A stretch of DNA of 64,000 nt from Sphingobium sp. (GTDB lineage Bacteria; Pseudomonadota; Alphaproteobacteria; Sphingomonadales; Sphingomonadaceae). Positions within the stretch are counted from its first letter, which is position 1. Each line of letters begins with the position of its first letter. Both the position numbers and the translations under genes were made by a program. The DNA lies in assembly GCA_017744605.1 (NCBI GenBank), contig JAGIAZ010000007.1:1-64000 (forward strand), read 5' to 3'. A model generated the notes under the pieces. That model saw nothing but the letters and a program-made list of their open reading frames with translations. It was not told the origin of the DNA and did no database searches. This document shows, piece by piece, positions 18,165 through 37,807 of the stretch.

Positions 18165-19511
18165 TCAGGCCTTGCCTTCGGCCACCGCATCGGCGTCACG
18201 CAGCGGCACGATCCAGACCAGCACCGCGCCGAGGATGGCGCCGGCGCACATGATCAGCGATACGGACAGCAGTTGGTCCTTGCCCAGGGCGTCGAACAGG
18301 AAACCGGCGATGATCGGCGAGCCGGCGGCGCCGGCACGGCCGACACCAAGCACGAACCCGGTGCCGGTGGCGCGGGCATAGGCGGGGAAGCCGCGGGCGA
18401 AGGCGGCATAATAGCCGACGATCGCTGCGTTGAGGAAGAACATGGTCAGGAACCCCGCCAGGCGCCATTGGCCGAGCGTGTCATGACCCATGCCGAACCA
18501 GGCGACCGCAACGATACCGAGCGCGCACATCGCGATGGTCGGGCCCTTGATGTCCCACTTCTTGAGCAGGAATCCGAACAGCGCGCCGCCGACCGCGCCA
18601 CCGATATTGGCATAGGTCAGCACGCTCGCGGCCAGTGGCTGACTGAAGCCGGTATCGGCGACGATCTGCACGGCAAATTTGAGGATGTAGTAGAAGGTCA
18701 GCGTGTGGAACATGTAGCCGAAAGCCAGCAGCAACGTGGTCGGCCGCAACTGGGGGTTCGACAGGATATCGGTGACCTTGGGCTTGGCGGCCTGCACCGG
18801 AATCGGCGGCAGCTCCGTGATCTCGGCCTTGCCGAATGCACGCAGCGACTTGTTGATCTTGCCGACGGCGCCTTCGGGCCTGCGCGCCGCGAAGAAAGCC
18901 GGCGTTTCCGGCACGAGCAAGACAACGAGCGGGATCATGATCGCCGTCACGACGGCGCCGAACAGGAACACGGCGCGCCAGTCATAATCGACCAGCAGCC
19001 AGCCCTGGGCCGCAAACCCGCCGATCACGCCGCCGACCGGATAGCCGATCACATAGAGCGCCATGGCGAGGCTGCGCGAGGCTTTGCTCGAGCTTTCGGC
19101 CGTCACGGCGTTGGTCGCTGCGAGCATGCCACCGATGCCGAGACCCGTGATCAACCGCCAGATCGTCAGCTCGGTCACGCCATGAGCGGCATGCGCCATG
19201 TACATGCCGATGGCCATGATCACGAGGCAGATCAGGATGTCGAGCTTGCGGCCGATCTTGTCAGCCAGGCTGCCGAGAATGACCGATCCGAAACCCATGC
19301 CGACGAGTTCAGCCGACAGCACGATGCCCAACTGCGAACGGGGAATGCCCCACTCCTTGGAAATACCGGGGGCCGCGAAGGCGCTGGACAGAACGTCGAA
19401 ACCGTCCAGGGCATTGAGAAGGATCATCAGGATGATGACGACCCATTGCCTGCCGGACATGGGCGATTCATTGATGATCGTCCGTGGATCGGTTCCAGCC
19501 ATGTCGTTCAT
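18165..19511 (-). CDS. MFS transporter, aromatic acid:H+ symporter (AAHS) family
   Basis: The 448-residue product has twelve predicted membrane segments. Family marks are the TM1 motif ALDGFDVLSSAFAAPGI, where the DGFD acid is required in PcaK-type carriers, and GSLADKIGRK after TM2. AAHS proteins import benzoate-type acids such as protocatechuate and vanillate. ATG 19511 is chosen because GGAGGGG precedes it; a longer frame adds a 39-residue non-membrane stretch. It lies downstream of marR on the same strand, 44 bases apart, so regulator and uptake are probably cotranscribed. The exact substrate is unknown. Confidence 0.85.
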   Translation of the reverse strand: MNDMAGTDPRTIINESPMSGRQWVVIILMILLNALDGFDVLSSAFAAPGISKEWGIPRSQLGIVLSAELVGMGFGSVILGSLADKIGRKLDILICLVIMAIGMYMAHAAHGVTELTIWRLITGLGIGGMLAATNAVTAESSSKASRSLAMALYVIGYPVGGVIGGFAAQGWLLVDYDWRAVFLFGAVVTAIMIPLVVLLVPETPAFFAARRPEGAVGKINKSLRAFGKAEITELPPIPVQAAKPKVTDILSNPQLRPTTLLLAFGYMFHTLTFYYILKFAVQIVADTGFSQPLAASVLTYANIGGAVGGALFGFLLKKWDIKGPTIAMCALGIVAVAWFGMGHDTLGQWRLAGFLTMFFLNAAIVGYYAAFARGFPAYARATGTGFVLGVGRAGAAGSPIIAGFLFDALGKDQLLSVSLIMCAGAILGAVLVWIVPLRDADAVAEGKA

Positions 19512-19555
19512 CCCCTCCAGAAATTTGTCGTTATGCGGTGCCCGCAGTGCCGAAT

Positions 19556-20056
19556 CTACTCGTGAATACGGCGCAAAAGCTCGATGAGCAATGCCGCCTC
19601 GCGCTTGGTGAAGCGTGAGCGAACCCATTGTTCATGCTCGTCGATACAGCGCCGCGCCTCAAGCAGTGCTTCGTGGCCCGGCGCGGTCAGCGTCAATGTC
19701 TGACGGCGACGGTCGCGCTGGGATTCTCCGCGCACGAGCAGGCCACGGGCCTCCAGCCGGTTGATGATCGCCATCGTGGTCGCGCGGTCCATCTGCAGAC
19801 CGCGGCCGATATCGGCCTGGGCGATATGCGGATGATCGTCGATCAGCCAGAGGACCGAGACCATCTTCTGCGTGAGACCCAGCTCGGCGAATGTTTCGGA
19901 AAAGTGCCGATGGGTCGCGCCATGGGCGAGACGGATGTGAAAGCCGATAACGTCATCGAGCGCGCCGATGTCGCCATCGCTAGCGGGCACGGCCCGACTG
20001 CTCGCGGGCCCGGCATTTGCGGCCAGCGCCGAACCCTGCCTTTCTTCTGCGTCCAA
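19556..20056 (-). CDS. MarR-family transcriptional regulator
   Basis: The 166-residue product carries a winged helix-turn-helix (about residues 65-125, with LTQKMVSVLWLIDDHPHIAQ, QMDRATTMAIINRLEARGLL and the wing RDRRRQTLTLT). MarR proteins usually repress nearby genes until a phenolic ligand binds. The start is probably TTG 20056, with GGGAG eight bases upstream; no suitable ATG precedes the domain. It is divergent from the lignostilbene dioxygenase at 20160 and upstream of the AAHS carrier, so it likely controls both through the shared intergenic region. The start choice is uncertain. Confidence 0.8.
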   Translation of the reverse strand: MDAEERQGSALAANAGPASSRAVPASDGDIGALDDVIGFHIRLAHGATHRHFSETFAELGLTQKMVSVLWLIDDHPHIAQADIGRGLQMDRATTMAIINRLEARGLLVRGESQRDRRRQTLTLTAPGHEALLEARRCIDEHEQWVRSRFTKREAALLIELLRRIHE

Positions 20057-20109
20057 CTCTTGCTCTCCCGAGGACCCCGTGCGACCCTCATTGATCGGGC
20101 GCAAAGACT

Positions 20110-20138
20110 TTGCCCATTTCGTAAGCGTAGCATACAAT
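20110..20138 (+). promoter_or_regulatory. Candidate promoter and MarR operator of the dioxygenase gene
   Basis: TTGCCC (20110-20115), a 17-base spacer and TACAAT (20133-20138) form a plausible -35/-10 pair, 22 bases before the dioxygenase ATG. An imperfect 15-base palindrome, GTAAGCGTAGCATAC (20121-20135), fills the spacer and would be a natural repressor site for the divergent MarR protein. Confidence 0.45.
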
Positions 20139-20159
20139 TCTGAGCGATAGGAGCAAGCC

Positions 20160-21638
20160 ATGGCACATTTCCCGGACATACCGGCTTTCACGGGCTTCAA
20201 CGCGCCGTCCAGAATCGAATGCGACATTGCGAATCTGGTGCATGAAGGCACGATTCCCCCCGAGCTCAATGGGGCCTTTTTCCGCGTCCAACCGGACCCG
20301 CAATTCCCGCCGCGGCTGGGCCACGACATCAGCTTCAATGGCGATGGCATGATCACGCGCTTCCACATCCATGACGGACAGTGCGACGTGCGCCAACGCT
20401 GGGCGCAGACCGACAAGTGGAAGCTGGAGAACGCCGCCAATAAGGGGCTGTTCGGCGCCTACCGCAATCCGCTGACCGACGACGAGAGCGTCAAGGGCGA
20501 AATCCGCGGCACGGCCAACACCAATGCCTTCCTCTATGCCGGCAAACTCTGGGCGATGAAGGAAGACAGCCCTTCCCTCACCATGGACCCCGCGACCATG
20601 GAAACGTTCGGCTATGAGAAGTTCGGCGGCAAGATGACGGGCCAGACCTTCACCGCTCACCCCAAGGTCGATCCCACGACCGGCAACATGATCGCCATCG
20701 GCTACGCGGCCTCCGGCCTCTGCACCGACGACGTGTGCCTCTACGAGATCGGCCCCGATGGCGAGTTGATCTACGAAGCGTGGTTCAAGGCGCCCTATTA
20801 TTGCATGATGCACGACTTCGGCGTGACGCCGGACTATCTGGTGCTGCACATCGTGCCGAGCATCGGCAGCTGGGAGCGGCTGGAAAAGGGCATGCCGCAT
20901 TTCGGCTTCGACACGACCCTGCCGGTCTATCTCGGCATCATCCCGCGCAGGGCCGATCTCAAGCAGGACGATATCCGCTGGTTCAAGCGCGACAATTGCT
21001 TTGCCAGCCATGTCCTGAATGCCTGGCAGGAAGGCAGCAAGATCCACTTCGTGACGCCGGAAGCGCAGAACAACATGTTCCCCTTCTTCCCGGACGTGCA
21101 CGGCGCACCATTCAATCCGCAGCAGGCGATGAGCAAGCTGACCGACTGGGTAGTCGATCTGGCCTCCAACTCGGACGAATTCACCGAGATCAAACGCCTC
21201 ACCGAGACCGCGTCCGAATTCCCGCGCATCGACGACCGCTTCACCGGCCTCAAGAACCGCTACGGCTGGGGCCTGGAGATGGACATGAAGCGTCCGGTCG
21301 CGCTCAAGGGCGGCAGTGCCGGCGGCTTCCTGATGAACTGCCTGTTCCTCAAGGACCTGGAGACCGGCGCCGAGCAGCATTGGTGGTGCGGCGACATCTC
21401 CTCGCTGCAGGAGCCCTGCTTCATCCCGCGCAGCAAGACCGCGCCCGAGGGCGACGGCTGGATCGTCATGGTCTGCAACCGGCTCGAGGAGCATAAGAGC
21501 GACCTGCTCATCTTCGAGGCGCTCGACATCAAGAAGGGTCCGGTCGCGACGATCCACATTCCCTTCCAGCTGCGCTTCGGCCTGCATGGCAATTGGGCCA
21601 ATGCCGAGGATATCGGCCTCGCAAAGGTAGCCGCCTGA
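20160..21638 (+). CDS. Carotenoid-oxygenase family protein, probable lignostilbene alpha,beta-dioxygenase
   Basis: The 492-residue product has the four iron-binding histidines of the RPE65/carotenoid oxygenase family at about H167 (TAHPK), H218 (CMMHDFG), H284 (FASHVLNAW) and H476 (GLHGNWA). Members from sphingomonads (LSD isozymes, NOV1) cleave the central double bond of 4-hydroxystilbenes with O2 to give two benzaldehydes. Such stilbenes arise from beta-1 and beta-5 lignin dimers. It is divergent from a MarR regulator and followed by a serine hydrolase and a DUF3237 protein, which favours a lignin-dimer role over carotenoid cleavage. A second, dissimilar paralogue is at 62338-63813. Confidence 0.88.
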   Translation: MAHFPDIPAFTGFNAPSRIECDIANLVHEGTIPPELNGAFFRVQPDPQFPPRLGHDISFNGDGMITRFHIHDGQCDVRQRWAQTDKWKLENAANKGLFGAYRNPLTDDESVKGEIRGTANTNAFLYAGKLWAMKEDSPSLTMDPATMETFGYEKFGGKMTGQTFTAHPKVDPTTGNMIAIGYAASGLCTDDVCLYEIGPDGELIYEAWFKAPYYCMMHDFGVTPDYLVLHIVPSIGSWERLEKGMPHFGFDTTLPVYLGIIPRRADLKQDDIRWFKRDNCFASHVLNAWQEGSKIHFVTPEAQNNMFPFFPDVHGAPFNPQQAMSKLTDWVVDLASNSDEFTEIKRLTETASEFPRIDDRFTGLKNRYGWGLEMDMKRPVALKGGSAGGFLMNCLFLKDLETGAEQHWWCGDISSLQEPCFIPRSKTAPEGDGWIVMVCNRLEEHKSDLLIFEALDIKKGPVATIHIPFQLRFGLHGNWANAEDIGLAKVAA

Positions 21639-21690
21639 GCAAAAAGCTTTAGGCTTCAGCTCGAATCACGATGTTGGGGGAGCTGGAGCC

Positions 21691-22884
21691 ATGAAGCCAT
21701 TTCGTACGGCCGCGACGACGCTATTTCTGTCCCTGGCCTTTGCCGGGGCAATTCAGGCAGGCGCACAGGATGTCGGCAAACAGGCCAACCCTTCGCCCGC
21801 CGTCATCAAGATGCGCCAGCAATGGCTGAATGGCGACATCAACAGCTTCACCTTCCGCGACAACGACCGGCTGTTCGATACCCGCACCGTGAAGCATGCC
21901 GGCGCAGTGTGGGCACTCCCGCGCGCTGTCGGTTTCAATATGCCTGCGGGCTATCAGGACTTCGCCGAGAAGACCTACACCAATGCCTTCCTGGTGATCC
22001 GCGATGGCAAGATCCTGTTCGAGGATTATCGCGATCGTTCGAACCCGGGCACGAAGTTCATCGCCTTCTCGATGTCGAAGTCGATCATCTCGATGCTGAC
22101 CGGCATCGCGCTCCAGAAGGGCCTTATCGCCTCGATCGACGATCCCGTCACGAAGTACGTCCCCGAGCTCAAGGGCGGTGGCTATGACGGCGTATCGATC
22201 CGCCACATCCTCCAGATGCGGTCGGGCGTCGACTATGAGGAGCGCTATGATTTCGGCGAGCACCCCAGCCCCGCCGCCGTTAATCACGAGACAGCGATCG
22301 TCGAGAACAAGCGCAGGTTCGCCGAATCCGCCCGGACGATCGGCAAGAAATGGGAGCCGGGCAGCCACTTCAACTATGCGACGATCGATACCGCCGTACT
22401 GGGATGGATGCTCGAGCGCGCCACCAGGCAGCCGATCGCCCAGTTCATGCAGGCCAATATCTGGGCGCCGCTCGGCGCCGAGGCGGACGGCTACTGGCTC
22501 GCGGACGGTCCGCCGGGCGTAGGGCGCGAACTGGCCGGCATGGGCTTCAACGCAACGCTGCGCGACTTCGGCCGGCTCGGCATGCTGATGCTCAATCAAG
22601 GCAAGCGCGGAAACCAGCAGATCGTGCCGGCCGGCTGGTTGAAGCAGGCGACCACTATGATGCCGACCGGCGCGCCGGGTGGGCGCGGCTATGGCCTGCA
22701 GTTCTGGCAGCTCGATGATGAGCCCGGCGCCTTCGCCGCGCTCGGCCTCGCGGGCCAGTTCATATATGTCCACCCCGCCACGCGCACCGTGATCGTCAAG
22801 CTCAGCTACTTCCCGCCTGTGGAGCCGCCTGAGGTGATGCCGGAGACACTGCGCTATTTCAAAGCGATCACCAGCCAGCGCTGA
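21691..22884 (+). CDS. Secreted serine hydrolase, class C beta-lactamase-like
   Basis: The 397-residue product starts with a cleavable signal peptide (about residues 1-25, ending AIQAGAQ) and has a beta-lactamase/esterase fold. The nucleophile motif SxxK is S127-M-S-K130 in IAFSMSKSII. The second motif appears as NYATID. Enzymes of this type include esterases such as EstB as well as penicillin-binding proteins. The gene lies 52 bases after the dioxygenase and 14 before a DUF3237 gene, so a hydrolytic step on an aromatic ester is more likely than antibiotic resistance, but no substrate can be read from the sequence. Confidence 0.8.
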   Translation: MKPFRTAATTLFLSLAFAGAIQAGAQDVGKQANPSPAVIKMRQQWLNGDINSFTFRDNDRLFDTRTVKHAGAVWALPRAVGFNMPAGYQDFAEKTYTNAFLVIRDGKILFEDYRDRSNPGTKFIAFSMSKSIISMLTGIALQKGLIASIDDPVTKYVPELKGGGYDGVSIRHILQMRSGVDYEERYDFGEHPSPAAVNHETAIVENKRRFAESARTIGKKWEPGSHFNYATIDTAVLGWMLERATRQPIAQFMQANIWAPLGAEADGYWLADGPPGVGRELAGMGFNATLRDFGRLGMLMLNQGKRGNQQIVPAGWLKQATTMMPTGAPGGRGYGLQFWQLDDEPGAFAALGLAGQFIYVHPATRTVIVKLSYFPPVEPPEVMPETLRYFKAITSQR

Positions 22885-22898
22885 GAGGAGACACGGCC

Positions 22899-23375
22899 AT
22901 GATACCGCAAGGAGCGATCCAGCCCGGCCTGGAATTCGTCTATGAAGCCGAGGGCAATCTCGGCGCGCCGGTCCCGATCGGCGATACGGTCGACGGCACC
23001 CGGCGCATCATCCCCATATTCGCGGGCGGGCGCGTCGAGGGACCGCTGATCAAGGGGCAATTGCTCGGCAATGCCGCCGACTTCCAGCTGACCCGCCCTG
23101 ACGGCGTCACCATCGCCGATGCGCTCTACGCGCTGGAGACCGACGACGGTGTCGTGATCCAGATCCGCAACCGCGGCCTGCGACATGGGCCGCCCGACGT
23201 GATGGCGCGGTTGGCGGCGGGCGACGATGTCGACCCGGCGGACTATTATTTCCGCACCGTGCCCGAGTTCATTGCGCCCAAGGGCCGCTATGACTGGATG
23301 AACAACTCGATCTTCATCTGCTCCGGCGCGCGCTACAAGGCCGGGATCAAGCTCTGGGTCTGGCGGGTGACGTGA
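22899..23375 (+). CDS. DUF3237 protein, candidate phenylcoumaran-acid decarboxylase
   Basis: The 158-residue product shows the compact beta-barrel pattern of DUF3237: a start GLEFVYEAEGNLG, GGRVEGPLIKGQLLG, an aromatic-rich middle (ADYYFRTVPEF) and a closing IKLWVWRV strand. In Sphingobium SYK-6 the DUF3237 proteins PhcF and PhcG decarboxylate the diacid of dehydrodiconiferyl alcohol to a stilbene, which a lignostilbene dioxygenase then splits. Here such a dioxygenase lies two genes upstream. That function is inferred from family and neighbours; other DUF3237 proteins have no known role. Confidence 0.75.
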   Translation: MIPQGAIQPGLEFVYEAEGNLGAPVPIGDTVDGTRRIIPIFAGGRVEGPLIKGQLLGNAADFQLTRPDGVTIADALYALETDDGVVIQIRNRGLRHGPPDVMARLAAGDDVDPADYYFRTVPEFIAPKGRYDWMNNSIFICSGARYKAGIKLWVWRVT

Positions 23376-23425
23376 GCCGGCGGCTCAGACGGCCGGCAAC
23401 AGGTCCGTAACCCCACGCCAGAGCG

Positions 23426-23449
23426 GCGCGCCACCAACAGGTGGCGCGC
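23426..23449 (+). terminator. Perfect GC-rich hairpin after the DUF3237 gene
   Basis: GCGCGCCACC (23426-23435) and GGTGGCGCGC (23440-23449) form a perfect 10-bp stem with an AACA loop, 50 bases past the DUF3237 stop. There is no T run, so it may be a pause or RNA-protecting stem instead of a full terminator. Confidence 0.45.
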
Positions 23450-23552
23450 GTGGCGAGGACGAGCAGCAGCAACGTATCGTCGAAGCGATGGAGCAGCATC
23501 GGCAGTCATGATCGAGGTTGCGCTCCCAAGCGATGCGGCCCATCTTCGCGCC

Positions 23553-24551
23553 ATGACGAAACTCAGCTTCCTCGATCTCGTGAACGTCCGCCAGGGCGAA
23601 GAAGCCGCCGATGCGATCGCGCGCGTGGGACCGGTGGCTGCGCAGGCCGAAGCACAGGGCTATCGTCGCTATTGGGTCGCCGAGCATCACGGCATGGCGG
23701 GCGTCGCGGCGGCGGCGACGGCGCTGATCATCGCCGAGGCCGGACGCGCCACGAAAACGATCCGCATCGGCGCGGGCGGCATCATGCTGCCCAATCATTC
23801 GCCGATGGTGATCGCCGAACAGTTCGGCACGCTCGACGCCCTCTTCCCCGGCCGCATCGATCTCGGTCTCGGCCGGGCCCCCGGTGCGGACGCCCGCGTG
23901 CTCCAGGCCCTGCGCCGGGACTATGAGCGCGAGGCCGATGAATTTCCGCGCAATGTCGTCGAGCTGCGCGCCCATCTCACCGGCGATCCCGACCTTGGCG
24001 TCGTGGCCGTGCCGGGCCGAGGCGCAAAGATCGAGATGTGGATCCTGGGCTCCAGCCTGTTCGGCGCGCAACTCGCGGCCGCCCTTGGCATGCCCTACGC
24101 CTTCGCCAGCCATTTTGCGCCCGACCTCCTCGACGAAGCGCTGGCGATCTATCGGCGCGACTTCCGGCCCTCGCAGCATCTGCGCGAGCCTTATGCCGCA
24201 GCTGCCTTCAACGCGATCGCCGGCGAGACGCGCGAGGAAGGCCGCTATCTGGCGAGTTCCATGGTGCAGAATTTCGTGGCGCTGCGCACCGGCAACCCCG
24301 GCAAGCTACCGCCGCCGATCGAGGGCTATCGCGAGAACCTCGATCCCTCGCTCCGCGCGATGCTCAATAATGTGCTGCGCTGTGGCGCCTTTGGCGATGT
24401 CGTGGATGTGGCCGAGGGCATGGGGACATTCCTGCGGCGCACGCAAGTCGACGAGATCATCGTCCATGGCGCCGTGTTCGATCCGGAAGCGCGGCTCAAA
24501 TCAATGGCGCTTGTGGCGCAGGCCTTCGAAACCATCCGCGAAACGGCGTGA
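23553..24551 (+). CDS. LLM-class flavin-dependent oxidoreductase
   Basis: The 332-residue product is a bacterial luciferase-like monooxygenase. Recognisable parts are the opening LSFLDLVNVRQG, RRYWVAEHHGMAGVAAAA, RIGAGGIMLPNHSP and FPGRIDLGLGRAPGAD, all typical of the MsnO8-like group. These proteins use FMNH2 or F420 with a TIM-barrel fold; many are uncharacterised. ATG 23553 gives the canonical N-terminus; ATG 23508 in the same frame adds 15 unusual residues, and neither has a strong RBS. It converges with copD. Its link to the aromatic pathway is unproven. Confidence 0.8.
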   Translation: MTKLSFLDLVNVRQGEEAADAIARVGPVAAQAEAQGYRRYWVAEHHGMAGVAAAATALIIAEAGRATKTIRIGAGGIMLPNHSPMVIAEQFGTLDALFPGRIDLGLGRAPGADARVLQALRRDYEREADEFPRNVVELRAHLTGDPDLGVVAVPGRGAKIEMWILGSSLFGAQLAAALGMPYAFASHFAPDLLDEALAIYRRDFRPSQHLREPYAAAAFNAIAGETREEGRYLASSMVQNFVALRTGNPGKLPPPIEGYRENLDPSLRAMLNNVLRCGAFGDVVDVAEGMGTFLRRTQVDEIIVHGAVFDPEARLKSMALVAQAFETIRETA

Positions 24552-24593
24552 GCATTCGGCTGGCGTGGGTCGACGCCGACGCAGAAAGGGCGG

Positions 24594-25511
24594 TCACCCT
24601 CCGCCCGGTTCCAGCATCCCAAGCCAACCGACCAACGCCAGAACCGCGAATGCAAGGGTCGCTTCAACGGCAATGCTGCGGCGCAAGTCCCTGAGGCTGG
24701 GACGCAACTCTCCACGCTCGATCGAAGCGCTCAACGCTGGCGTCAGCCTGTACCGGTTGAGCGCGGCGCAGCCCAACATCGCCGCGAAGAAAACCAGCTT
24801 CACGAACAGCAGCCGGCCATAAGTCGAGGTGCCGAGCGTCGGCAGAGCGGCCGCATCCACGATAAAAGCGGCATTTGCGATGCCTGTCAGGACGATCAGG
24901 ACGACGACGATAGTGCCCGTCCGCCCGAAGTCGGCCAATGCCGCATGCGCCACTTCGATTCGCTCATGCGTGACCTTTCCGCCGGGCAACACCAGCGCCA
25001 GCAACATGGCCAAGGCGCCCAGCCAGGTGGAAGCCGCCAGCAAGTGCACGACGTCGGAGACGAGATGCACGGAGCCCGCCATCCCCTCGCCGCCCGCGCC
25101 ATGGCCGCTCCATGCAAGTGTAGCGATGGCGACCGCTCCGCAAAGGGCCAGCAACGCGGGTTTTGCACGTCCAAGTGGCAGAAGCAGTGCAAGGACCAGC
25201 CCCAATAGGAGGGCAGCGGTCCGCGTCACGAAAGCCCAGCCGATCGCGGACTCGGCCAGCAATGTTTGCACCAGCCCCATGTCGAGCGTGCCAAAGGGCG
25301 TGGCGCTCATCCGCGCCACAAGCAGCAGGAAACCAAGCAGGCTGAGCACGATGCTCAATCCCGCAAGCAGGATGAGGACACGGCCGAGACGAAACATGCG
25401 CCAAAGCCCCTCCCCACCCCGATGGACCAAGGTGAAGAAAGGGAGGCCGAAGAACAGGCCGAGGCCACCGTACAATCCGAAGCGGACTGCCGCGAGCGGC
25501 CAATCCGACAT
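24594..25511 (-). CDS. copD: Copper resistance/homeostasis membrane protein CopD
   Basis: The 305-residue product is an integral membrane protein with about eight helices, matching CopD: the HLVSDVVHLLAASTWLGALAM-type region carries paired histidines that can bind copper, and the C-terminal half has LLFVKLVFFAAMLGCAALNRYRL. CopD works with periplasmic CopC in copper uptake or handling. It follows copC immediately, with a 1-base gap, on the minus strand. Copper supply may serve copper enzymes of the cell; nothing ties it directly to the neighbouring catabolic genes. Confidence 0.85.
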   Translation of the reverse strand: MSDWPLAAVRFGLYGGLGLFFGLPFFTLVHRGGEGLWRMFRLGRVLILLAGLSIVLSLLGFLLLVARMSATPFGTLDMGLVQTLLAESAIGWAFVTRTAALLLGLVLALLLPLGRAKPALLALCGAVAIATLAWSGHGAGGEGMAGSVHLVSDVVHLLAASTWLGALAMLLALVLPGGKVTHERIEVAHAALADFGRTGTIVVVLIVLTGIANAAFIVDAAALPTLGTSTYGRLLFVKLVFFAAMLGCAALNRYRLTPALSASIERGELRPSLRDLRRSIAVEATLAFAVLALVGWLGMLEPGGG

Positions 25512-25512
25512 C

Positions 25513-25887
25513 TTACTTCACAGTGAAGGCGAGCTTGCCCGCAACGCGGTGTGTGTCGGTCGAGACGACATGCCAATTGAGACTATAGTGCCCCGCCGGC
25601 AAGGGCTTGTCGAGTGTCGCCACGAGGGTCTTGCCGTCCTTGCCGACCGACGTCTTGAGGCCCGTCATCTTCATGGGCTCCATGCCCTTCATGTCCATCA
25701 TGAGGTCGGCCCCGGATACCGGCCCCATCAACGCCTCGCTGAACTTGAGCGAGATTTCCTTGACGTTGCCGGCGGTCGCATCGGCCGCGGGCGTGGACGA
25801 CAGCAATTTGGGATGCGCCAGCACCGGCGCTGCCATGGCCGCAACAGCCACAGCAAGCACCAGACCGGCATTGCGAACGACGTTCAT
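25513..25887 (-). CDS. copC: Periplasmic copper-binding protein CopC
   Basis: The 124-residue product has a signal peptide ending PVLA|HPKLLSSTPA, so the mature protein starts with the histidine that binds Cu(II) in CopC. The rest fits the CopC beta-barrel: LKFSEALMGPVSG, a Met-rich DLMMDMKGMEPMKM stretch for Cu(I), and the HVVSTDTHRVAGKLAFTV end. ATG 25887 with GGAGAG upstream is preferred to a longer frame. copC-copD form a two-gene operon. Confidence 0.88.
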   Translation of the reverse strand: MNVVRNAGLVLAVAVAAMAAPVLAHPKLLSSTPAADATAGNVKEISLKFSEALMGPVSGADLMMDMKGMEPMKMTGLKTSVGKDGKTLVATLDKPLPAGHYSLNWHVVSTDTHRVAGKLAFTVK

Positions 25888-25957
25888 AACGACTCTCCTG
25901 AACTGATCACCATTCGAGCATAGCCGGTGTCCACTGAACACCCGGCAACGAATATGC

Positions 25958-27616
25958 TCAGGCCGGTGCCAGTTCCTTGGCGTCTTCCAGGATCATCTGC
26001 GAGCCCTTCTCGCCGATCATGATCGTCGCGGCGTTGGTGTTGCCCGAGACGATCTTGGGCATGACCGAGGCATCGACGACGCGAAGGCCCTGGATACCGT
26101 TCACGCGCAGACGGGAATCGACCACCGCCTTGGGATCGGAGCCCATGCGGCACGTGCCGACGGCATGATACAGCGTACCGCCGGCGACCTGCGCATAGAA
26201 GAACATCTGGTCGTCGGTCTCGCCGAACGGATCGGGACCGGCGATATACTTGGCGATCGCGGGCTGCTGCCAGATCTTGCGGATGAGCTTGAGCTGCGTG
26301 ACCGCCATCTGCTGGTCGATCTTGTCGTCGAGATAATTGGGTACGATCTTCGGCGGCTCCAGCCCATCCGGCGACCGGGCGTGGATGTGGCCACGCGATT
26401 CTGGGCGCACCTGACAGGGATTGGAGGCCATGCCCGGCTCCTTCTCCAGCGCCAACTGCTGCCTGGCATTGAGCACTTCGAGATCCATCGAGGCCGCCAT
26501 GGTGTGGATCTGGATATCCGGCGTTTCCAGGCCTTCGCGCGAGCGCACGAAGCAGCAGCCATGGGCCACGGCATAGCTGAGCAGGCCCTTGCGGGTGAGC
26601 CCATATTTCACGATCTGGCCGAGCAGCGGGAAACCGCTCGCCATGGAGTTGACAGACGGGACGCCGTCCTTGAGGCGCGCCTGGCAGCCGATCATGTAGT
26701 GATCCTGCATATTCTCGCCGACGCCGGCGGACTCGTGCAGCACGTCGACGCCGATGCCCTTCAGCACCTTGCCCTGACCGATGCCGGAGATTTCGAGCAG
26801 CTTGGGGCTTTCCACCGCACCCGCCGCGAGGATCACTTCCTTGCGGACCTTGACGGTGCGCTTCACGCCCTTCTGGATGAACTCCACGCCGACCGCGCGC
26901 TTGCCCTCGAAGAGGATGCGGGTCGTCATGGCGCGCGTCTCGACCACGAGGTTGTCGCGATGCATGACCGGATGGAGGAATGCGACAGCCGCTGAGCAGC
27001 GCATGCCGTTGCGCGCGGTCATCTGGAACCAGCTGGTGCCTTCCTGGTCGCCGTCGTTGAGGTCGTCCTTATAGGCGATGCCGGCTTCGACGCAGGCGTC
27101 GATCAGCGCCTTGCTGATCGGATGATGCTCGGGGAAATCGGAAACGCCCAGCTCGCCGCCGGTGCCATGGGTCGGGATCGGCCCGCGTTGCTGGTCTTCG
27201 CTCTTCTTGAAATAAGGCAGCACGTCGTCCCAGGCCCAGCCTTCGCAGCCCATCTGACGCCAGCCGTCATAATCCGCCGACTGACCGCGCACATAGAGCA
27301 GGCCGTTGAGCGAAGAGGAGCCGCCGAGGACCTTGCCCTTTGGCCATTTGTGGGGTCGCCCGCCGGAGCCGGCGTCGACCTCCGTCTCGTAGAGCCAGTT
27401 CACCTTGGGGTCGTTCAGCGTCTTGCCGAAGCCGATCGGGATGTGGATCATCAGGTTGGACTTGAACTGGCTGAGCTCGCGTGTCGGCCGGTCGTCACCG
27501 CCGGCCTCCAGGAGCACGACCTTGGTGTTCCGGTCCGCCGACAGCCGATTGGCAAGCACGCAGCCGGCGCTGCCGGCACCCACGATCACATAGTCGGCGA
27601 TCGTCTCATCTGACAT
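25958..27616 (-). CDS. GMC-family FAD alcohol oxidoreductase
   Basis: The 552-residue product is a glucose-methanol-choline oxidoreductase: the FAD dinucleotide motif [14 protein letters not shown] lies near residue 12, the second signature [18 protein letters not shown] near 85, and the catalytic region HAVGTCRMG plus [19 protein letters not shown] at the C-terminus, giving the active-site His and Asn. GMC enzymes PhcC and PhcD of Sphingobium SYK-6 oxidise the A-ring side-chain alcohol in dehydrodiconiferyl alcohol breakdown. The surrounding stilbene dioxygenase, DUF3237 and LigW genes make that type of substrate plausible, though choline or simple alcohols cannot be excluded. ATG 27616 has a GAGAGAGGG site. 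Confidence 0.85.
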
Positions 27617-27812: not shown

Positions 27813-29453
27813 TCAGACCGCTTCGCCGCCCTTTCGCGCGCGCGATATCACCGTGCTTTCGTCACGGTTGATCCGGAGCAGCAGCACCAGCAGCACGATC
27901 ACGATCACCGGCGAGACGATGTTGACCGACATGATCGCCTGGCCAAGATCGCCGCCGTTATGATCGCTGACGATACCGACGAAATAGGGGCCCATACCGA
28001 GGCCGAGCAGCGTCGAGACGATGATGTAGGTCGAGGAGGCAATGCCCCGCATGCGCGGCAGCACCAGATCGTAGATCAGCGAATAGACGGGCGGCATCCA
28101 GGCCGTCAGAATGATGCTGTAGAGCGTGAAGCGCAGATAGAAGGCCCCGGCGCTGTCCGCGCTATAGGTCCAGATGCCGAAGAGCGGCGAAACACCGAGC
28201 GAGAAGAGCGTGAGCCAGATGCGGCCCTTGCCCCCCATGCGTGCCGTCAGCCAGTCCGAGAGCGGCCCGGCGATGATCGGCCCGACGATGCCGATGGCGG
28301 CCGACAGCAGGCCGAATTGCAGCGCGGTCGCGGCCAGCGACAGGTGAAACTCGCGAACCAGGAACGAGGGCGTGAAACCCATCACGCCGTAGTTGATCGA
28401 GGTCTGCAGGCCGCCGACGACCATGAGCAGCAGGATCGAAGGCGAGACGATGACATGATAGGCCGGCTTGTCGGTCAGCTTGAACGACTGGAACAGGTTC
28501 ACGATCACGAACAGGCCGAAGCCGACCACGAACCATTGCATGACGTGCGCGTCGATCTCGAGGCCGAGCGCCTTGACCGGCGGACGCGGGCTATAGCTCT
28601 GGGTGAACCTGGTCATGCCGTAACAGACCGCGAAAATGACCAGCAGGCTCGCAATGTTGAACAGCCACTGCGATGCACTTGCGCGGCGGCTCCAGAGCGA
28701 GAACCAGTTGGCGCCCGGCGTGACGGCGGCCAGCACCGCGCCGCTCGCCTTGAACGGCGCGGGATCGGCCGGCGTCGGGATGCCGTCGACGCCGCCGCGC
28801 ACCGGCTCCTTGAGGCGAAGGATGAGCAGCGAGAGAATGAAGCCCGGGATCGCCGCGACAAGAAAGGCGAACTGCCAGCCCGAAAAGCCGCCCGGCGCGC
28901 TACCGGCCGGATAGCGATGATCCCACCAGCTCGCGACGACGCCGCCCAGGGTCATGGACAGGCCGAGACCCAGCGCGGTGGCGATGCCCATGGCGGCCAT
29001 GGCGGTGCCGCGCTTCGAGCGCGGGAAAGTGTCGAAGATGATCGAATTGGCGGCAGGCTGTGCGGCGGCCTCGCCCACGCCGACGCCGAGGCGCGAAATG
29101 GCGAGCAGGCCGAAGCCGCCGGCAAAGGCGGCAAGCCCGGCACAGGCCGACCAGGCCGCAAGGCAGATGCCGAGCAGCCTAGTGCGCACCCAGCCATCGA
29201 CGAGGCGGCCGAGCGGCAGCGAGAAGAGCGCGTAGAAGAGCGCGAAGACCGTGCCGTAAAGCAGACCGAGCTCAGCATCGCCGATCTTGAGGTCGGCGCG
29301 GATGCTGGGCGCGAGGATCGAGAGAATCTGACGGTCGAGCAGGCTGATCGCCTGCGACGATGACACCAGGACCAAAGCGTACCAGGACGCCTTGGTAAGC
29401 CGCGCCCCCTGCCCCGCTTCGGCCCCGGCGCCGCCGCTCACAGTTTGAACCAC
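27813..29453 (-). CDS. MFS transporter, spinster-like
   Basis: The 546-residue product has twelve membrane helices with an MFS signature at QAISLLDRQILSILAPSIRADL and GRLVDGWVRTRLLG. It is longer than a basic MFS protein because of an extended central loop and extra helix around residues 230-330. Spinster-type carriers are frequent beside aromatic catabolic genes in sphingomonads, and aromatic substrates are likely but not shown. The start is GTG 29453, overlapping the 3' end of ligW by 16 bases, so it is probably translated together with LigW. Confidence 0.8.
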   Translation of the reverse strand: MVQTVSGGAGAEAGQGARLTKASWYALVLVSSSQAISLLDRQILSILAPSIRADLKIGDAELGLLYGTVFALFYALFSLPLGRLVDGWVRTRLLGICLAAWSACAGLAAFAGGFGLLAISRLGVGVGEAAAQPAANSIIFDTFPRSKRGTAMAAMGIATALGLGLSMTLGGVVASWWDHRYPAGSAPGGFSGWQFAFLVAAIPGFILSLLILRLKEPVRGGVDGIPTPADPAPFKASGAVLAAVTPGANWFSLWSRRASASQWLFNIASLLVIFAVCYGMTRFTQSYSPRPPVKALGLEIDAHVMQWFVVGFGLFVIVNLFQSFKLTDKPAYHVIVSPSILLLMVVGGLQTSINYGVMGFTPSFLVREFHLSLAATALQFGLLSAAIGIVGPIIAGPLSDWLTARMGGKGRIWLTLFSLGVSPLFGIWTYSADSAGAFYLRFTLYSIILTAWMPPVYSLIYDLVLPRMRGIASSTYIIVSTLLGLGMGPYFVGIVSDHNGGDLGQAIMSVNIVSPVIVIVLLVLLLRINRDESTVISRARKGGEAV

Positions 29454-30493
29454 CGTTCGGCGTTGGTCTGGAAGAACTTCTTCTTCTGCGCCGCCGTGAT
29501 GTCGAGATCGTCCATCAAGCGCACCTCGTCGGGCACATATTGATACGGATAGTCCATGGCGTACATCACGCGATCCTCTCCCATCACCTCGATCATTGTC
29601 TTGATCGCAGGGCCAAACGGCAAGCCGCTGTTGGTGGCTAGCACATTGTTCCGCATGTAGTGAAACAGGTCGTGCTGGAGGGGTTTGAGGCGCGGATAAC
29701 GGCCCGAGCGCAGGCCGGCCTTGTGCATATAGTCGAGCCGGTAGAGCATGTACGGCAGGCCCTCGCAGCCATGGCCGAGCATGAGCTGCAGATTGGGATA
29801 GCGATCGAACACGCCCGTCGTGAGCAGCCGCATGGCATGGTAGCTGGTCTCGACCGCGAAGCCGAAGATAGCGCCATCGAGACCGGCGCCGACCATGTCG
29901 CCGATCATAGCGTCGGGCAAGCCCTGCGGATGGATGTACAGCGGCAGGTCGAGATCGGCGCAGGCGCGCAATATGGGCTCGAACTGCGGCTCATCGAGAT
30001 AATGGCCATGTGTGTGACTGTTGATCTGGACGCCGTGGAAGCCGAGCTCTTCCTTGCCGCGGTGCAGTTCCCCGACCGACCACTCCGCATCCTGCGGCGC
30101 GACGGCGATCATGCCGTAGAACCGGTCGGGATAGCGCTCGCAGGCGGCCTTGAGCTTGTCGTTGGAGTTGCGCGCGATCCGCCTCGCTTCCTCCACGTCG
30201 AATATCGACTGCACGCCGGGGCTGGTGAGCGCGAGCACCGCTTTGTCGATGCCGCTCTCGTCCATGGCCTGGATACGCAGTTCGCCGATATCGAGCAGCC
30301 GCTCGCGGATGAAGGTCGTGCGCTCTGACGGGCTGCTCCCATAAAAGCCCCACAGGCTTACAGTGCCTTCGTCGGCCCGGCCTTCCTTGACCAGCCGCAT
30401 GATGGCGTCGAACTGTTCCTGGGTGGCCCAGGCCTCTTCGGTTGCGATCCGCAAATAGCCCCGGTCTCCGCCGGTCTTGAGCGCGTGTGTCAC
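29438..30493 (-). CDS. ligW: Probable 5-carboxyvanillate decarboxylase (LigW family)
   Basis: The 351-residue product is an amidohydrolase-superfamily decarboxylase. It keeps, at the same numbers, the residues I recall for LigW: metal ligands E19 (RIATEEA), H188 (LYIHPQG) and D314 (AMDYPYQY), and active-site R58, H241, R252 and Y317. The N-terminus (LKTGG then GYLRIATEEA) and C-terminus (KKKFFQTNAERWFKL) also match LigW. LigW removes the ring carboxylate of 5-carboxyvanillate to give vanillate, without oxygen, in biphenyl and phenylcoumaran pathways. A related decarboxylase with another ortho-carboxyphenol substrate is the main alternative. It is followed by an overlapping MFS gene. Confidence 0.85.
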   Translation of the reverse strand: MTHALKTGGDRGYLRIATEEAWATQEQFDAIMRLVKEGRADEGTVSLWGFYGSSPSERTTFIRERLLDIGELRIQAMDESGIDKAVLALTSPGVQSIFDVEEARRIARNSNDKLKAACERYPDRFYGMIAVAPQDAEWSVGELHRGKEELGFHGVQINSHTHGHYLDEPQFEPILRACADLDLPLYIHPQGLPDAMIGDMVGAGLDGAIFGFAVETSYHAMRLLTTGVFDRYPNLQLMLGHGCEGLPYMLYRLDYMHKAGLRSGRYPRLKPLQHDLFHYMRNNVLATNSGLPFGPAIKTMIEVMGEDRVMYAMDYPYQYVPDEVRLMDDLDITAAQKKKFFQTNAERWFKL

Positions 30494-30524
30494 GGCAATC
30501 CCTCTCCAAATCTCACTGAGTTCC

Positions 30525-30601
30525 GTTCGCGCTGAGCTTGTCGAAGCACTCTTCTTCCTCCTTCAAGAAAAGGAGGGCCCTTCGACAGGCTCTGGGCGAA
30601 C
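30525..30601. repeat. Paired REP-like inverted repeat, copy 1
   Basis: Two 22-base arms, 30525-30546 (starts GTTCGCGCTGAGC) and 30580-30601 (ends GGGCGAAC), are inverted relative to each other (19 of 22 match). An inner CCTCCTT/AGGAGG pairing lengthens the hairpin. It lies between the minus-strand aldehyde dehydrogenase and ligW. Copies 2 and 3 are at 42487-42570 and 48217-48304. Confidence 0.75.
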
Positions 30602-30622
30602 GGCTTTTCCTTCAATCCTCGT

Positions 30623-32053
30623 TCAGCCTTCGTGCACCGCCTTCAATACGAGGCAGGCCATCAGGCCCTCGGGGCCATCCTCATGGCCGTGGCCGGACCA
30701 TTTGACGCCGCCGAAAGGCGCGTCCGCACCGCCGATCATCGTGCTGTTGATGCCGAGCATGCCGGTCTCGACATCATGGGCGACGCGGCGCTGCATCTTG
30801 ACGTCGTCGGTCCAGGCATAGGCCGCCAGACCGTAAGGCAGGCGATTGGCCTCCGCGATCATGTCGTCGGCATTGCGATAGGGATTGATGAGCGCGACGG
30901 GGCCGAAGGGCTCTTCGTTCATGATGTCGGCGTCGAGCGGGATCTCGCTCAGCACCGTGGGCGCATAGAAATAGCCCTGGTTGCCGAGGCGCTCCCCGCC
31001 GGTATGCAGCCTGGCGCCCGCCTTGACTGCGCCGCCGATGAGACGCTCCATCGCGTCCGGGCGCCGCGCATTGGCCATGGGGCCCATCTGCACGCTTGCG
31101 TCGAGGCCATTGCCCACCTTCAGCGCCTTGGCGCGCTCGGCAAAGCCCATGCGGAACTTCTCGTAGATATCTTCCTGCACGATGAAGCGCGTGGGCGAGA
31201 CGCAGACCTGGCCGCTATTGCGATATTTCGCGCCGACCATCGTGTTCAGCACATGATCGACATCGACATCGTCGAACACCAGCACAGCGCCATGACCGCC
31301 AAGCTCCATGGTCGTGCGCTTCATGTCGTCGGCGGCGAGCTTGGCGAGATGCTTGCCGATGACAGTCGAGCCCGTGAAGCTGAGCTTGCGGATGATCGGC
31401 GACGTCAGCAGGTGGCGCGACACTTCGTCAGGCACACCGAACACGGCCTGTGCGACATTCTTTGGCAAGCCGGCGTCATAGAGGGACTGGAGGATGCCGA
31501 GTGCCGAAGCCGGCGTCTCTTCGGCCGATTTCATGATCACGGAACAGCCTGCTGCGATCGGGGCGCCGAGCTTGCGGCCCGGATTACCGAGCGGGAAGTT
31601 CCAGGGTGAGAAAGCGGCAACGGGGCCGACCGGCTCGTAGCGCACGGTCGAGCGCTGACCCGCCGGACGGACGAGTTCGCGGCCATAGGTACGGAACACC
31701 TCGCCCGCGTAGAAATTGAACAGGCCGGCGACCATCATCACTTCGATCCTGGCCTCGGGCAGCGTCTTGCCCTCTTCCATCGTGGCGATGCGAGCGAGCT
31801 CGTCCGCCCGCTCCGTGAGCAGCCGCGCCGCGCCGGAGAGCACCGTCGCGCGCTCCTGCGCCGTCGAGTTCCGCCACGTCCTGAAGCCACGCTGTGCAGC
31901 CTCGAGCGCCCGGTCGAGATCGGCGGCGTCGGCGAGCGGCAACTCGCCCAGCGTCTCGCCTGTCGCGGGATTGAAAATGGCCTGGGTCCGGCGGCTGCCA
32001 CCGCTCACGACCTCGCCGTCGATGTACATGTGGAGCGGAGGATAGCTGGTCAT
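30623..32053 (-). CDS. NAD(P)-dependent aldehyde dehydrogenase
   Basis: The 476-residue product is a standard aldehyde dehydrogenase. The catalytic Cys is in RNSGQVCVSPTRF and the general-base Glu in TTMELGGHG; the cofactor region has PWNFPLGNPGRKL and FTGSTVIGKHLAK. It closely resembles the succinate-semialdehyde and benzaldehyde branch. ATG 32053 opens the usual N-terminal domain. It precedes ligW in the same direction, separated by a REP-like hairpin, so it may oxidise an aromatic aldehyde such as 5-formylferulate or a dimer aldehyde before decarboxylation. The substrate is inferred from context only. Confidence 0.85.
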   Translation of the reverse strand: MTSYPPLHMYIDGEVVSGGSRRTQAIFNPATGETLGELPLADAADLDRALEAAQRGFRTWRNSTAQERATVLSGAARLLTERADELARIATMEEGKTLPEARIEVMMVAGLFNFYAGEVFRTYGRELVRPAGQRSTVRYEPVGPVAAFSPWNFPLGNPGRKLGAPIAAGCSVIMKSAEETPASALGILQSLYDAGLPKNVAQAVFGVPDEVSRHLLTSPIIRKLSFTGSTVIGKHLAKLAADDMKRTTMELGGHGAVLVFDDVDVDHVLNTMVGAKYRNSGQVCVSPTRFIVQEDIYEKFRMGFAERAKALKVGNGLDASVQMGPMANARRPDAMERLIGGAVKAGARLHTGGERLGNQGYFYAPTVLSEIPLDADIMNEEPFGPVALINPYRNADDMIAEANRLPYGLAAYAWTDDVKMQRRVAHDVETGMLGINSTMIGGADAPFGGVKWSGHGHEDGPEGLMACLVLKAVHEG

Positions 32054-32307
32054 ATCGGGTCCTTCGATTCCCTGGAAACAGCAGGCGCGAAATTCATGCC
32101 GCTTCGCCCCGCTATTCGGTTCTGCCGCGCCCGGCAATGCTTTATGGGCACATCGGCGCTTCCGTGAAATCAGGCCGCGGCCGCCTCGATCTCGCCGATC
32201 CATTCTCTCCGGCGACGGGTCCAGTGCGGCTTCGCCACCCCTTTCCACCGCCAATTTATGGGCTTAGGAACCACGCGGACGGGAACGAACGATTTTGGGG
32301 AGGGCAT

Positions 32308-32793
32308 ATGGGGAGCTACGCCGAAGACCGGGCCGCGATCGAGCAACTCGAAGCGGAATATCTCTTCGCGATGGACTGGGGTGACGCCGAATCCTACGCC
32401 AATTGCTTCGCGCCGGACGGCGTTCTGGAGTGGGCGCGCGGCCGGGCGGTCGGCCCCGCCGAAATCCGTGAAGAAGTCGGCCGATTCAAGGCGCTGATCG
32501 CACAGGTCTATGGCACGGACGGCCAGGGCCGGCCGGTCCGCCTGCGGCATTTCATCACCAATCAGGTGCTCCACATCCATGGCGACACGGCCAAGGGCCG
32601 CGCCTATTGGTTCGAGTTCGCCAACAACAGCCCGGACGGCACGCCTGTCGCGGGCAGCTACGGTCATTATGAGGACGACCTGCGCAAGGTCGACGGCCAG
32701 TGGAAATTCATGCGGCGGCACATCTTCAACGAGCAGCTCGAGGATCGCCGCGCAGGAGAAGAGAACCCGGTGAGGTCGGCAAAGGTGCCCTGA
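32308..32793 (+). CDS. SnoaL/NTF2-fold protein
   Basis: The 161-residue product has the SnoaL-like (NTF2) fold: an N-terminal helix IEQLEAEYLFAMDWGDAESYANCFAPDGVLEW and later strands LRHFITNQVLHIHGDTAKGRAYW. Such folds bind small hydrophobic molecules and include dehydratases, isomerases and lyases in aromatic breakdown. ATG 32308 follows an AGGG site. It is divergent from the aldehyde dehydrogenase across about 250 bases that likely hold both promoters. Its reaction is unknown; it is shorter than the 238-residue NTF2 protein at 57392-58108. Confidence 0.7.
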   Translation: MGSYAEDRAAIEQLEAEYLFAMDWGDAESYANCFAPDGVLEWARGRAVGPAEIREEVGRFKALIAQVYGTDGQGRPVRLRHFITNQVLHIHGDTAKGRAYWFEFANNSPDGTPVAGSYGHYEDDLRKVDGQWKFMRRHIFNEQLEDRRAGEENPVRSAKVP

Positions 32794-32871
32794 ACGGCCC
32801 GCGCTTGCCCTGCCCCAACGCGTGGCATGGCCTGCCTCCTTTCGGGCGGGGTACGAACGAGGGGAAGCGGC

Positions 32872-33250
32872 ATGAATCTGGTGCTGAGCGAGAACAGGCT
32901 GCTGCGCATCGGCAGCATGACGATCTTCTACATCGCCCAGGGCCTGCCGATCAGCCTCTTCCTTTACGCGATCAATGCCTGGCTGGCGGATAACGGCCAA
33001 TCAGCGGGCGCCGTCGCCGCGATCATCGCCACCGTCTACATGCCGTGGAGCTTCAAGTGCTTCGCGGCCGCGCCGCGCTGATGGACCGCTATACCTATCT
33101 GCTCATGGGCCGGCGGTGGCCGGCTATGGCAGCATCATGTCGATGATCCTCATCATCGCCCTGACCGTCCTTGCCTGCCTCGGCTACGCGATGATGCGCA
33201 TTGGCGGGCGCGACGAGCATCTCGGCGAGGTCGAACCCCGTATCGACTGA
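32872..33250 (+). pseudogene. Decayed MFS (AmpG/PAT-like) transporter
   Basis: The first about 65 codons encode an intact transporter N-terminus (MTIFYIAQGLPISLFLYAI, then MPWSFK), then the frame is lost near 33067-33075. The next stretch, in a different frame, reads LMDRYTYLLMGRRWP, the expected continuation, and near 33110 it jumps to the final membrane segment, SMILIIALTVLACLGYAMMR, and a hydrophilic tail ending at 33250. A frameshift plus loss of several hundred codons therefore removed the middle of the gene. An intact member has about 420-450 residues. It lies beside a SnoaL gene and may be an unused carrier of the aromatic locus. Confidence 0.8.

Positions 33251-35096: not shown

Positions 35097-37807
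<2,711 letters not shown>

What the first reader, a model, noticed from the sequence alone, without database searches (positions are those of the whole stretch)
18165..33250. Candidate beta-5 (phenylcoumaran) lignin-dimer locus in one region
Within 15 kb lie, by family, the known steps of the dehydrodiconiferyl alcohol route of SYK-6: GMC alcohol oxidoreductase (PhcC/PhcD type), aldehyde dehydrogenase, DUF3237 protein (PhcF/PhcG type), lignostilbene dioxygenase and LigW, plus two transporters and a MarR regulator. Having all of these grouped is unusual; the genes known in SYK-6 are dispersed. The three genes without a place in the known route (serine hydrolase, LLM oxidoreductase, SnoaL) are candidates for missing steps.
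Basis: partly seen in the sequence, partly recalled or inferred. Interest (0 to 1): 0.8.

Follow-up and report, generated by a model that had tools for sequence, protein, structure and literature searches.

The report
Known SYK-6-type lignin-dimer cleavage locus
This stretch is the close counterpart of a lignin-dimer and vanillate breakdown locus already studied gene by gene in the bacterium Sphingobium SYK-6, but one small conserved gene in it, of the DUF3237 family, has no shown job and may let these bacteria eat a cross-link of grass cell walls.

Summary
The genes are there, but the locus is not unusual: it is syntenic with one SYK-6 region (1.385-1.41 Mb), 14 genes at 58-91% identity. Two DesR operators known from SYK-6 are present letter for letter. 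LsdD, FerD and LigW2 support the lower beta-5 route (stilbene to vanillin plus ferulate). The SnoaL protein is not PcfL. The open point is the DUF3237 clade: on the same strand within 6 kb downstream of lsdD in 61 of 80 named loci, and a divergent neighbour of an HpvZ-clade GMC gene in 10 of the 16 genomes holding both. I infer a decarboxylase feeding LsdD. Boldest reading: its substrate is 8-5-dehydrodiferulate, by structure the pathway acid DCA-CC; that would explain why PcfL-bearing Novosphingobium, which should not need it for lignin alcohol dimers, often keep it. No activity is shown, and the phyletic support does not survive a tree control.

The parts
13942..16986 (+). formate dehydrogenase-type molybdopterin oxidoreductase (fdhF), flank; 86% to the SYK-6 gene in the same place
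17220..17990 (+). fdhD, formate dehydrogenase accessory protein; 82% to SYK-6
18165..19628 (-). MFS transporter, nearest NCBIfam subfamily aromatic acid/H+ symporter (below its cut-off); 75% to SYK-6
19556..20056 (-). DesR ortholog (MarR family, 166 aa from the TTG at 20056, start inferred); 74% to the SYK-6 protein
   Evidence: PMC6888825 for DesR
20121..20135 (-). DesR operator IR-R, identical to SYK-6 in all 15 bases, 25-39 bp before the lsdD start
20160..21638 (+). LsdD, lignostilbene dioxygenase; 88% to SYK-6 LsdD; passes the NCBIfam equivalog cut-off
21691..22884 (+). serine hydrolase of the class C beta-lactamase-related family (SMSK at residue 127; signal-peptide-like start, by eye), absent from the SYK-6 cluster; 29 of 80 lsdD loci
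22899..23375 (+). DUF3237 protein of the lsdD-linked clade; function not shown; predicted decarboxylase feeding LsdD
23508..24551 (+). LLM-class flavin oxidoreductase (MsnO8 family); 76% to SYK-6; 5 of 80 lsdD loci
24594..25941 (-). CopD (24594-25511) and CopC (25513-25941), an insertion seen in 0 of 80 other lsdD loci (40% or more, within the fetched stretches)
25958..27616 (-). HpvZ ortholog (GMC oxidoreductase); 86% to SYK-6
27813..29453 (-). MFS transporter; 58% to SYK-6
29438..30493 (-). LigW2 ortholog (5-carboxyvanillate/5-carboxyferulate decarboxylase family); 70% to SYK-6
30623..32254 (-). FerD ortholog (aldehyde dehydrogenase; homology to SYK-6 begins at residue 68 of this frame); 84% to SYK-6
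32137..32793 (+). SnoaL_4/NTF2 protein (homology to SYK-6 begins at residue 60 of this frame); 68% to the SYK-6 gene in the same place; not PcfL or LdpA
33341..35017 (-). LigH, formate-tetrahydrofolate ligase; 87% to SYK-6
35097..36026 (-). MetF; 83% to SYK-6
36036..37490 (-). LigM, vanillate/3-O-methylgallate O-demethylase; 91% to SYK-6; passes the NCBIfam equivalog cut-off
37542..37556 (-). DesR operator IR-M, identical to SYK-6 in all 15 bases, upstream of ligM

Best explanation
The stretch 18165-37490 is the ortholog of the SYK-6 ligM-metF-ligH ... ferD-ligW2-hpvZ-LLM-DUF3237-lsdD-desR locus: a DesR-controlled unit in which LsdD splits the beta-5 stilbene DCA-S into vanillin and 5-formylferulate, FerD oxidises the latter, LigW2 decarboxylates it to ferulate, and LigM with MetF and LigH removes and recycles the methyl group of vanillate. 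HpvZ takes in the beta-O-4 product HPV. These assignments rest on orthology to proteins studied in SYK-6. Inferred from family only: the flanking formate dehydrogenase oxidises C1 units. Inferred, not shown: the lsdD-linked DUF3237 protein decarboxylates a phenylcoumaran 3-carboxylate (DCA-CC type) with opening of the dihydrobenzofuran ring, giving LsdD its stilbene. My confidence is about 0.95 for the orthology and the known steps, and about 0.4 for the DUF3237 step. The single figure below is for the statement as a whole.
Against: [quoted passage not shown] N. aromaticivorans lacking pcfL piles up DC-C one to one; its relative N. subterraneum carries the DUF3237 gene, so if N. aromaticivorans has it too, the gene alone cannot replace PcfL on DC-C. 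HpvZ-clade GMC and the DUF3237 clade do not co-occur beyond chance: 16 of 18 genomes with the GMC against 26 of 31 without it, p 1.0. The link between loss of the DUF3237 clade and possession of PcfL (Fisher p 0.04) does not survive the tree: 4-5 independent pairs, median p 1. 14 of the 19 lsdD loci without the DUF3237 gene have 8 kb or more of downstream sequence, so the pair is not obligatory.
Confidence: 0.7

Rival explanations
1. One reading: a complete self-contained DCA pathway, with the GMC protein doing the work of PhcC/D, the DUF3237 protein that of PhcF/G, and the serine hydrolase, LLM and SnoaL proteins as missing steps.
For: Same families and the same order of chemistry; GMC and DUF3237 genes recur together at lsdD; three of the 49 genomes searched (G008, G015, G030) show no PcfL, PhcF or PhcG at the identities used, yet hold lsdD with this GMC-DUF3237 pair (G015 and G030 are draft metagenome bins, so absence is weak).
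Against: GMC protein 86% to HpvZ against 39-40% to PhcC/PhcD; in SYK-6 PhcC and PhcD are the named DCA-C oxidases although HpvZ is present; own genome holds a PhcG ortholog (69%) on another contig; LLM in only 5 of 80 loci.
Confidence: 0.2
2. The DUF3237 protein works on a beta-O-4 side product together with HpvZ, for instance the beta-keto acid made from HPV, and sits by lsdD only because the genes share DesR control.
Against: 26 of the 42 genomes with the DUF3237 clade have no HpvZ-clade GMC gene, and in 14 of 62 loci its nearest start overlaps the lsdD stop by 4 bp.
Confidence: 0.2
3. The DUF3237 protein is not a decarboxylase here but binds, or sets the stereochemistry of, a labile quinone-methide or stilbene intermediate, in the way of dirigent and allene-oxide-cyclase barrels.
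Confidence: 0.15

Closest known systems
Sphingobium sp. SYK-6 locus around SLG_12740-SLG_12870 (ligM, metF, ligH, ferD, ligW2, hpvZ, lsdD, desR)
   Same: Gene content, order and relative strand; 58-91% protein identity; both DesR operators letter for letter
   Different: The window has the serine hydrolase and CopD-CopC, and lacks the extra MFS gene between SnoaL and ferD
Novosphingobium aromaticivorans Saro_0796-0802 (pcfL, ferD, ligW, lsdD); not read itself, read here in its relative N. subterraneum, locus L033
   Same: desR-lsdD-DUF3237-MFS-ligW-ferD in the same order
   Different: Next to ferD a SnoaL_4 gene taken for pcfL by place and family, which is not an ortholog of the window's SnoaL gene; no hpvZ, LLM or serine hydrolase within the fetched stretch
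PhcF/PhcG (SYK-6) and PinX (N. rhizosphaerae LY), DUF3237 decarboxylases
   Same: Same Pfam family PF11578 (PhcF, PhcG; PinX per PMC12607616); partners of a GMC oxidase and a lignostilbene dioxygenase
   Different: 32-38% identity (for PinX measured on its SYK-6 homolog); separate branch of the tree, SH-aLRT 93

Membership tests
HpvZ (HPV oxidase) | orthology to the SYK-6 protein | tested here: met
   86% over 550 residues and the same place between MFS and LLM; that this gene is SLG_12830 follows from tag order
HpvZ (HPV oxidase) | oxidises HPV to VAL | not testable with these tools
   needs an enzyme assay
PhcC/PhcD (DCA-C oxidases) | closest to PhcC or PhcD among SYK-6 GMC proteins | tested here: not met
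   39% and 40%, the same level (39-41%) as to five other GMC proteins of SYK-6 and this genome
PhcF/PhcG (DCA-CC decarboxylases) | orthology to PhcF or PhcG | tested here: not met
   32% and 36%; own genome has a different PhcG ortholog at 69%
PhcF/PhcG (DCA-CC decarboxylases) | DUF3237 domain and fold | tested here: met
PhcF/PhcG (DCA-CC decarboxylases) | decarboxylating ring opening | not testable with these tools
   needs an enzyme assay
LsdD | Phe59, Tyr101, Lys134, Ser283 and the metal-site His/Glu residues | tested here: met
   all 11 positions looked at carry the expected residue; nine are named in PMC8191317 passages, His167 and His218 are recalled
LsdD | equivalog cut-off of NCBIfam NF053778 (lignostilbene-alpha,beta-dioxygenase) | tested here: met
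   848 bits against 800
LigW2 | orthology to the SYK-6 gene between ferD and the MFS gene | tested here: met
   70% over 351 residues, same place
FerD | orthology to the SYK-6 gene next to ligW2 | tested here: met
   84%
DesR | MarR protein divergent from lsdD, with its operators | tested here: met
   74% to SYK-6; IR-R and IR-M identical
LigM | equivalog cut-off of NCBIfam NF047885 | tested here: met
   883.6 bits against 580
PcfL/LdpA (for the SnoaL gene 32137-32793) | close relation over the full length | tested here: not met
   32% over 131 residues to PcfL and 38% over 127 to LdpA, while PcfL and LdpA share 44% over 228; both references are assigned by place and family, not by annotation

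The most novel reading that the evidence does not exclude
desR-lsdD-DUF3237 is a bacterial route for 8-5-dehydrodiferulate, the ferulate cross-link of grass cell walls. Its benzofuran form is, by structure, the pathway acid DCA-CC. The DUF3237 protein would decarboxylate it with ring opening to DCA-S, which is the stilbenoid poacic acid, and LsdD, FerD and LigW would turn that into vanillin and ferulate. The lignin alcohol dimers (through GMC oxidases or PcfL) would then be further entries into a route built on a plant-wall acid. This would explain why many Novosphingobium with PcfL and without HpvZ-clade GMC genes keep the DUF3237 gene, in some overlapping lsdD.
Probability: 0.28. Interest if true: 0.75.

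Novelty: new member of a known kind. Interest (0 to 1): 0.42.

Why it matters
The locus shows in another genome that the SYK-6 lower beta-5 steps, vanillate demethylation and the DesR regulator form one conserved unit; it corrects a plausible but wrong reading by family names (GMC is HpvZ, not PhcC/D). The useful new lead is a DUF3237 clade tied to lsdD across Sphingomonadales, for which the passages and searches made here turned up no function. If it handles 8-5-diferulate, it gives a defined enzyme for a grass-wall cross-link and a way from grass hydrolysates to vanillin and ferulate.

Tried and rejected
GMC as PhcC/PhcD: rejected by identity and synteny. DUF3237 as PhcF/PhcG: rejected as orthology. 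SnoaL as PcfL or LdpA: rejected. Phyletic argument that the DUF3237 clade and PcfL replace one another: raw counts suggest it (7 of 7 genomes without the clade have PcfL; 18 of 18 without PcfL have the clade; p 0.04), and HpvZ-clade GMC and PcfL avoid each other (p 0.00015), but with the LsdD tree as control no test reaches significance. Co-occurrence of HpvZ-clade GMC with the DUF3237 clade: none beyond chance (p 1.0); only their closeness where both occur speaks for a link. A first count of MarR in 80 of 80 loci was false, because that query ran antisense into lsdD; repeated with the trimmed protein: 77 of 80. Notebook entry 3 misstates the operator control as 2 of 80; one search shows 1 of 80. 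PadC was not among the fold matches shown, so a structural link of DUF3237 to PadC is untested here. Papers on diferulate catabolism: searches (660 papers matched, 20 listed; 14 listed): no listed title and no passage that I opened describes a bacterial 8-5-diferulate pathway; that is an absence in those two listings only. SLG_12840, 12850, 12770, 12780, 12790 and 12880 are in no held main text; supplements were not searched.
Full report
1. Observation. The cluster continues on both sides: fdhF-fdhD to the left and ligH-metF-ligM to the right. CopD and CopC lie inside it and were not mentioned. The window is contig C77 of a 3.37 Mb draft genome, 81% complete.

2. What the locus is. A scan of named genomes with the LsdD protein kept the best 80 of 217 confirmed relatives; the best is SYK-6 (88%). 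The SYK-6 chromosome around it has the same genes in the same order: ligM 91%, metF 83, ligH 87, SnoaL 68, ferD 84, ligW2 70, MFS 58, hpvZ 85, LLM 76, DUF3237 83, lsdD 88, MFS 75, fdhD 82, fdhF 86, and DesR 74. SYK-6 names come from a table in the review PMC12997858 (passages): ligM SLG_12740, metF 12750, ligH 12760, ferD 12800, ligW2 12810, hpvZ 12830, lsdD 12860; desR is SLG_12870 in PMC6888825 (passages). I placed the tags on the genes by order and family; that the LLM and DUF3237 genes are SLG_12840 and SLG_12850 is inferred from this order. An extra SYK-6 MFS gene lies between SnoaL and ferD; the serine hydrolase and CopD-CopC have no match there.

3. Two wrong assignments. The GMC protein is 86% identical to the SYK-6 gene at the hpvZ place and 39-40% to PhcC and PhcD, a level it also shows to five other GMC proteins of SYK-6 and this genome; even the functional twins HpvZ and HpvY share only 39% (passage in PMC11837543). 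PhcC/D (SLG_09480/09500) and PhcF/G (SLG_09360/09370) lie near 1.0 Mb in SYK-6 (placed by tag order, family and closeness to lsdB). The DUF3237 protein is 32% to PhcF, 36% to PhcG and 38% to the PinX homolog, but 82% to its SYK-6 counterpart. This genome has 10 DUF3237 matches, among them a PhcG ortholog (69%, contig C6) and a PinX-homolog ortholog (93%, contig C21). The SnoaL protein is neither PcfL nor LdpA; the LdpA-type gene of the window is 57416-58120(-), 80% to the SYK-6 gene that I take for ldpA by place and kinship.

4. Regulation. DesR represses ligM, desB and itself, and vanillate is the likely releasing ligand in SYK-6 (PMC6888825, passages). The operators IR-R and IR-M occur in the window with no mismatch, at 20121-20135 between lsdD and desR and at 37542-37556 before ligM; with up to three mismatches allowed, each search found only that one match in 64 kb, against 0.39 and 0.44 expected by chance. 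In the 80 named loci the best match to IR-R within 260 bp before lsdD has four mismatches or fewer in 67, against 1 of 80 equal stretches inside lsdD. desR is divergent next to lsdD in 77 of 80. That lsdD and what follows it answer to DesR is inferred from the place of the box; the passages read concern desR, ligM and desB.

5. The DUF3237 clade. Of the 80 loci, 61 have a DUF3237 gene of one tight clade (70-85% to the window's) on the same strand within 6 kb downstream of lsdD; of the other 19, five have 3.1 kb or less of downstream sequence and 14 have 8 kb or more. With the start codon nearest to the lsdD stop taken, distances range from overlap (37 bp in one, 4 bp in 14 of 62 loci, window included) to 5.6 kb. 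In a tree of 37 rows (about every third linked row; of the paralogs four divergent or second-half rows were dropped beforehand) the linked rows form one side of a branch, SH-aLRT 93, below the tool's star of 95. Genome-wide profiles cover 49 genomes: the window's own and 48 behind 50 (later 48) loci that I chose from the 80, mostly isolates or long stretches; L052 was not held and L063 and L072 are one genome. DUF3237 clade in 42 of 49, one copy each; PcfL at 67% or more in 31 (next best level 55%); PhcG clade at 60% or more in 25 (next 48%); PhcF at 60% or more in 14 (a 46% match dropped); HpvZ-clade GMC at 69% or more in 18 (a 55% match dropped). All seven genomes without the DUF3237 clade have PcfL, and all 18 without PcfL have the clade (p 0.04), but the tree-controlled test has too few independent pairs to tell. 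HpvZ-clade GMC and the DUF3237 clade do not co-occur beyond chance (p 1.0). Four genomes (G008, G015, G030, G041) lack PcfL, PhcG and PhcF at these levels; all four have the DUF3237 clade and three the HpvZ-clade GMC; G015 and G030 are metagenome bins, so their absences are weak.

6. A GMC-DUF3237 pair. Of the 16 genomes with both, 10 have them as divergent neighbours 95-293 bp apart (coordinates): G008, G009, G010, G015, G016, G021, G026, G027, G030, G032; G035 has 1.25 kb, and the five of the SYK-6 group, window included, have them farther apart in one locus. In G016 the pair is on a contig other than that of the lsdD locus (its coordinates exceed the length of the lsdD contig). The two GMC genomes without the DUF3237 gene, G011 and G028, have a PcfL gene on the same contig, 250 bp and 8.9 kb away. 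The trio of functions GMC oxidase, DUF3237 decarboxylase and lignostilbene dioxygenase is known from PhcC/D, PhcF/G with lsdB near by, and from PinY, PinX, PinU.

8. The diferulate idea. PMC8191317 names DCA-CC as 5-(2-carboxyvinyl)-2-(4-hydroxy-3-methoxyphenyl)-7-methoxy-2,3-dihydrobenzofuran-3-carboxylate (passage). That is the benzofuran form of 8-5-dehydrodiferulic acid (my reading of the structure). PMC11323797 made DC-A by reducing 8-5-coupled diferulate and made DC-S-C from the same diferulate by alkali, citing a paper on poacic acid production (Chemicals section and reference list), and its name for DC-S-C is that of DCA-S in PMC8191317; that DCA-S is poacic acid follows from this. So a decarboxylase before LsdD would open grass-wall diferulate to these bacteria without any alcohol oxidase or PcfL. 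The 8-5 benzofuran dimer is reported from maize tissue (PMC2852861, passages), and radical coupling is held to give the cyclic form (PMC6008569, passage). Against it: SYK-6 is reported to use PhcF and PhcG for DCA-CC, and nothing here shows activity.

9. What I saw of the papers. PMC12997858: sections 4, 5, 6 and 10 whole, other passages. PMC11323797: abstract, first part of Results, first part of Discussion, sections 17 and 19, passages. PMC12607616: abstract and parts 1 and 2 of Results. PMC8191317, PMC6888825, PMC11837543, PMC8704240, PMC2852861, PMC6008569, PMC5241289: passages. PMC12710314: searched for six locus and gene names, no match. PMC11737130: listing only. PMC4651077: not held.

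10. Verdict. A known locus in a new genome, correctly spotted as lignin-dimer genes, wrongly read as PhcC/D and PhcF/G and as an unusual grouping. The lsdD-linked DUF3237 clade is the part worth a bench test.

Noticed in passing
window 57416-58120 (-): LdpA-type SnoaL/NTF2 gene, 80% to the SYK-6 gene taken for ldpA (beta-1 dimers) and 46% to PcfL.
   Followed up: partly
window 43465-56828 (-): A second aromatic-type cluster: VanA-type Rieske oxygenase, ALDH, PQQ alcohol dehydrogenase with cytochrome c, CoA ligase, FAD_binding_4 flavoprotein, TonB receptor, animal-type haem peroxidase.
   Followed up: no
window 24594-25941 (-): CopC-CopD pair between LLM and hpvZ; in 0 of 80 other lsdD loci at 40% identity or more, within the fetched stretches.
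   Followed up: partly
window 20121-20135 and upstream of lsdD in L007-L086: DesR-like operator before lsdD across Sphingomonadales; in the 30 loci with three mismatches or fewer its near edge lies 22-52 bp before lsdD, often in a drifted form GTATGCTCCACTAAC in Croceibacterium and relatives.
   Followed up: partly
G000 contig C77, 73760-74452 (outside the window): Another PcfL/LdpA-family gene, 54% to PcfL; G043 (55%) and G041 (53%) have matches at the same level, perhaps a third subgroup; not compared with each other.
   Followed up: no
window 37772-39163 (+): Open frame of 463 aa without Pfam match that still finds 58% identity over about 190 residues beside ligM in SYK-6; the opposite-strand frames were not scanned, so the real gene is not assigned.
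   Followed up: no
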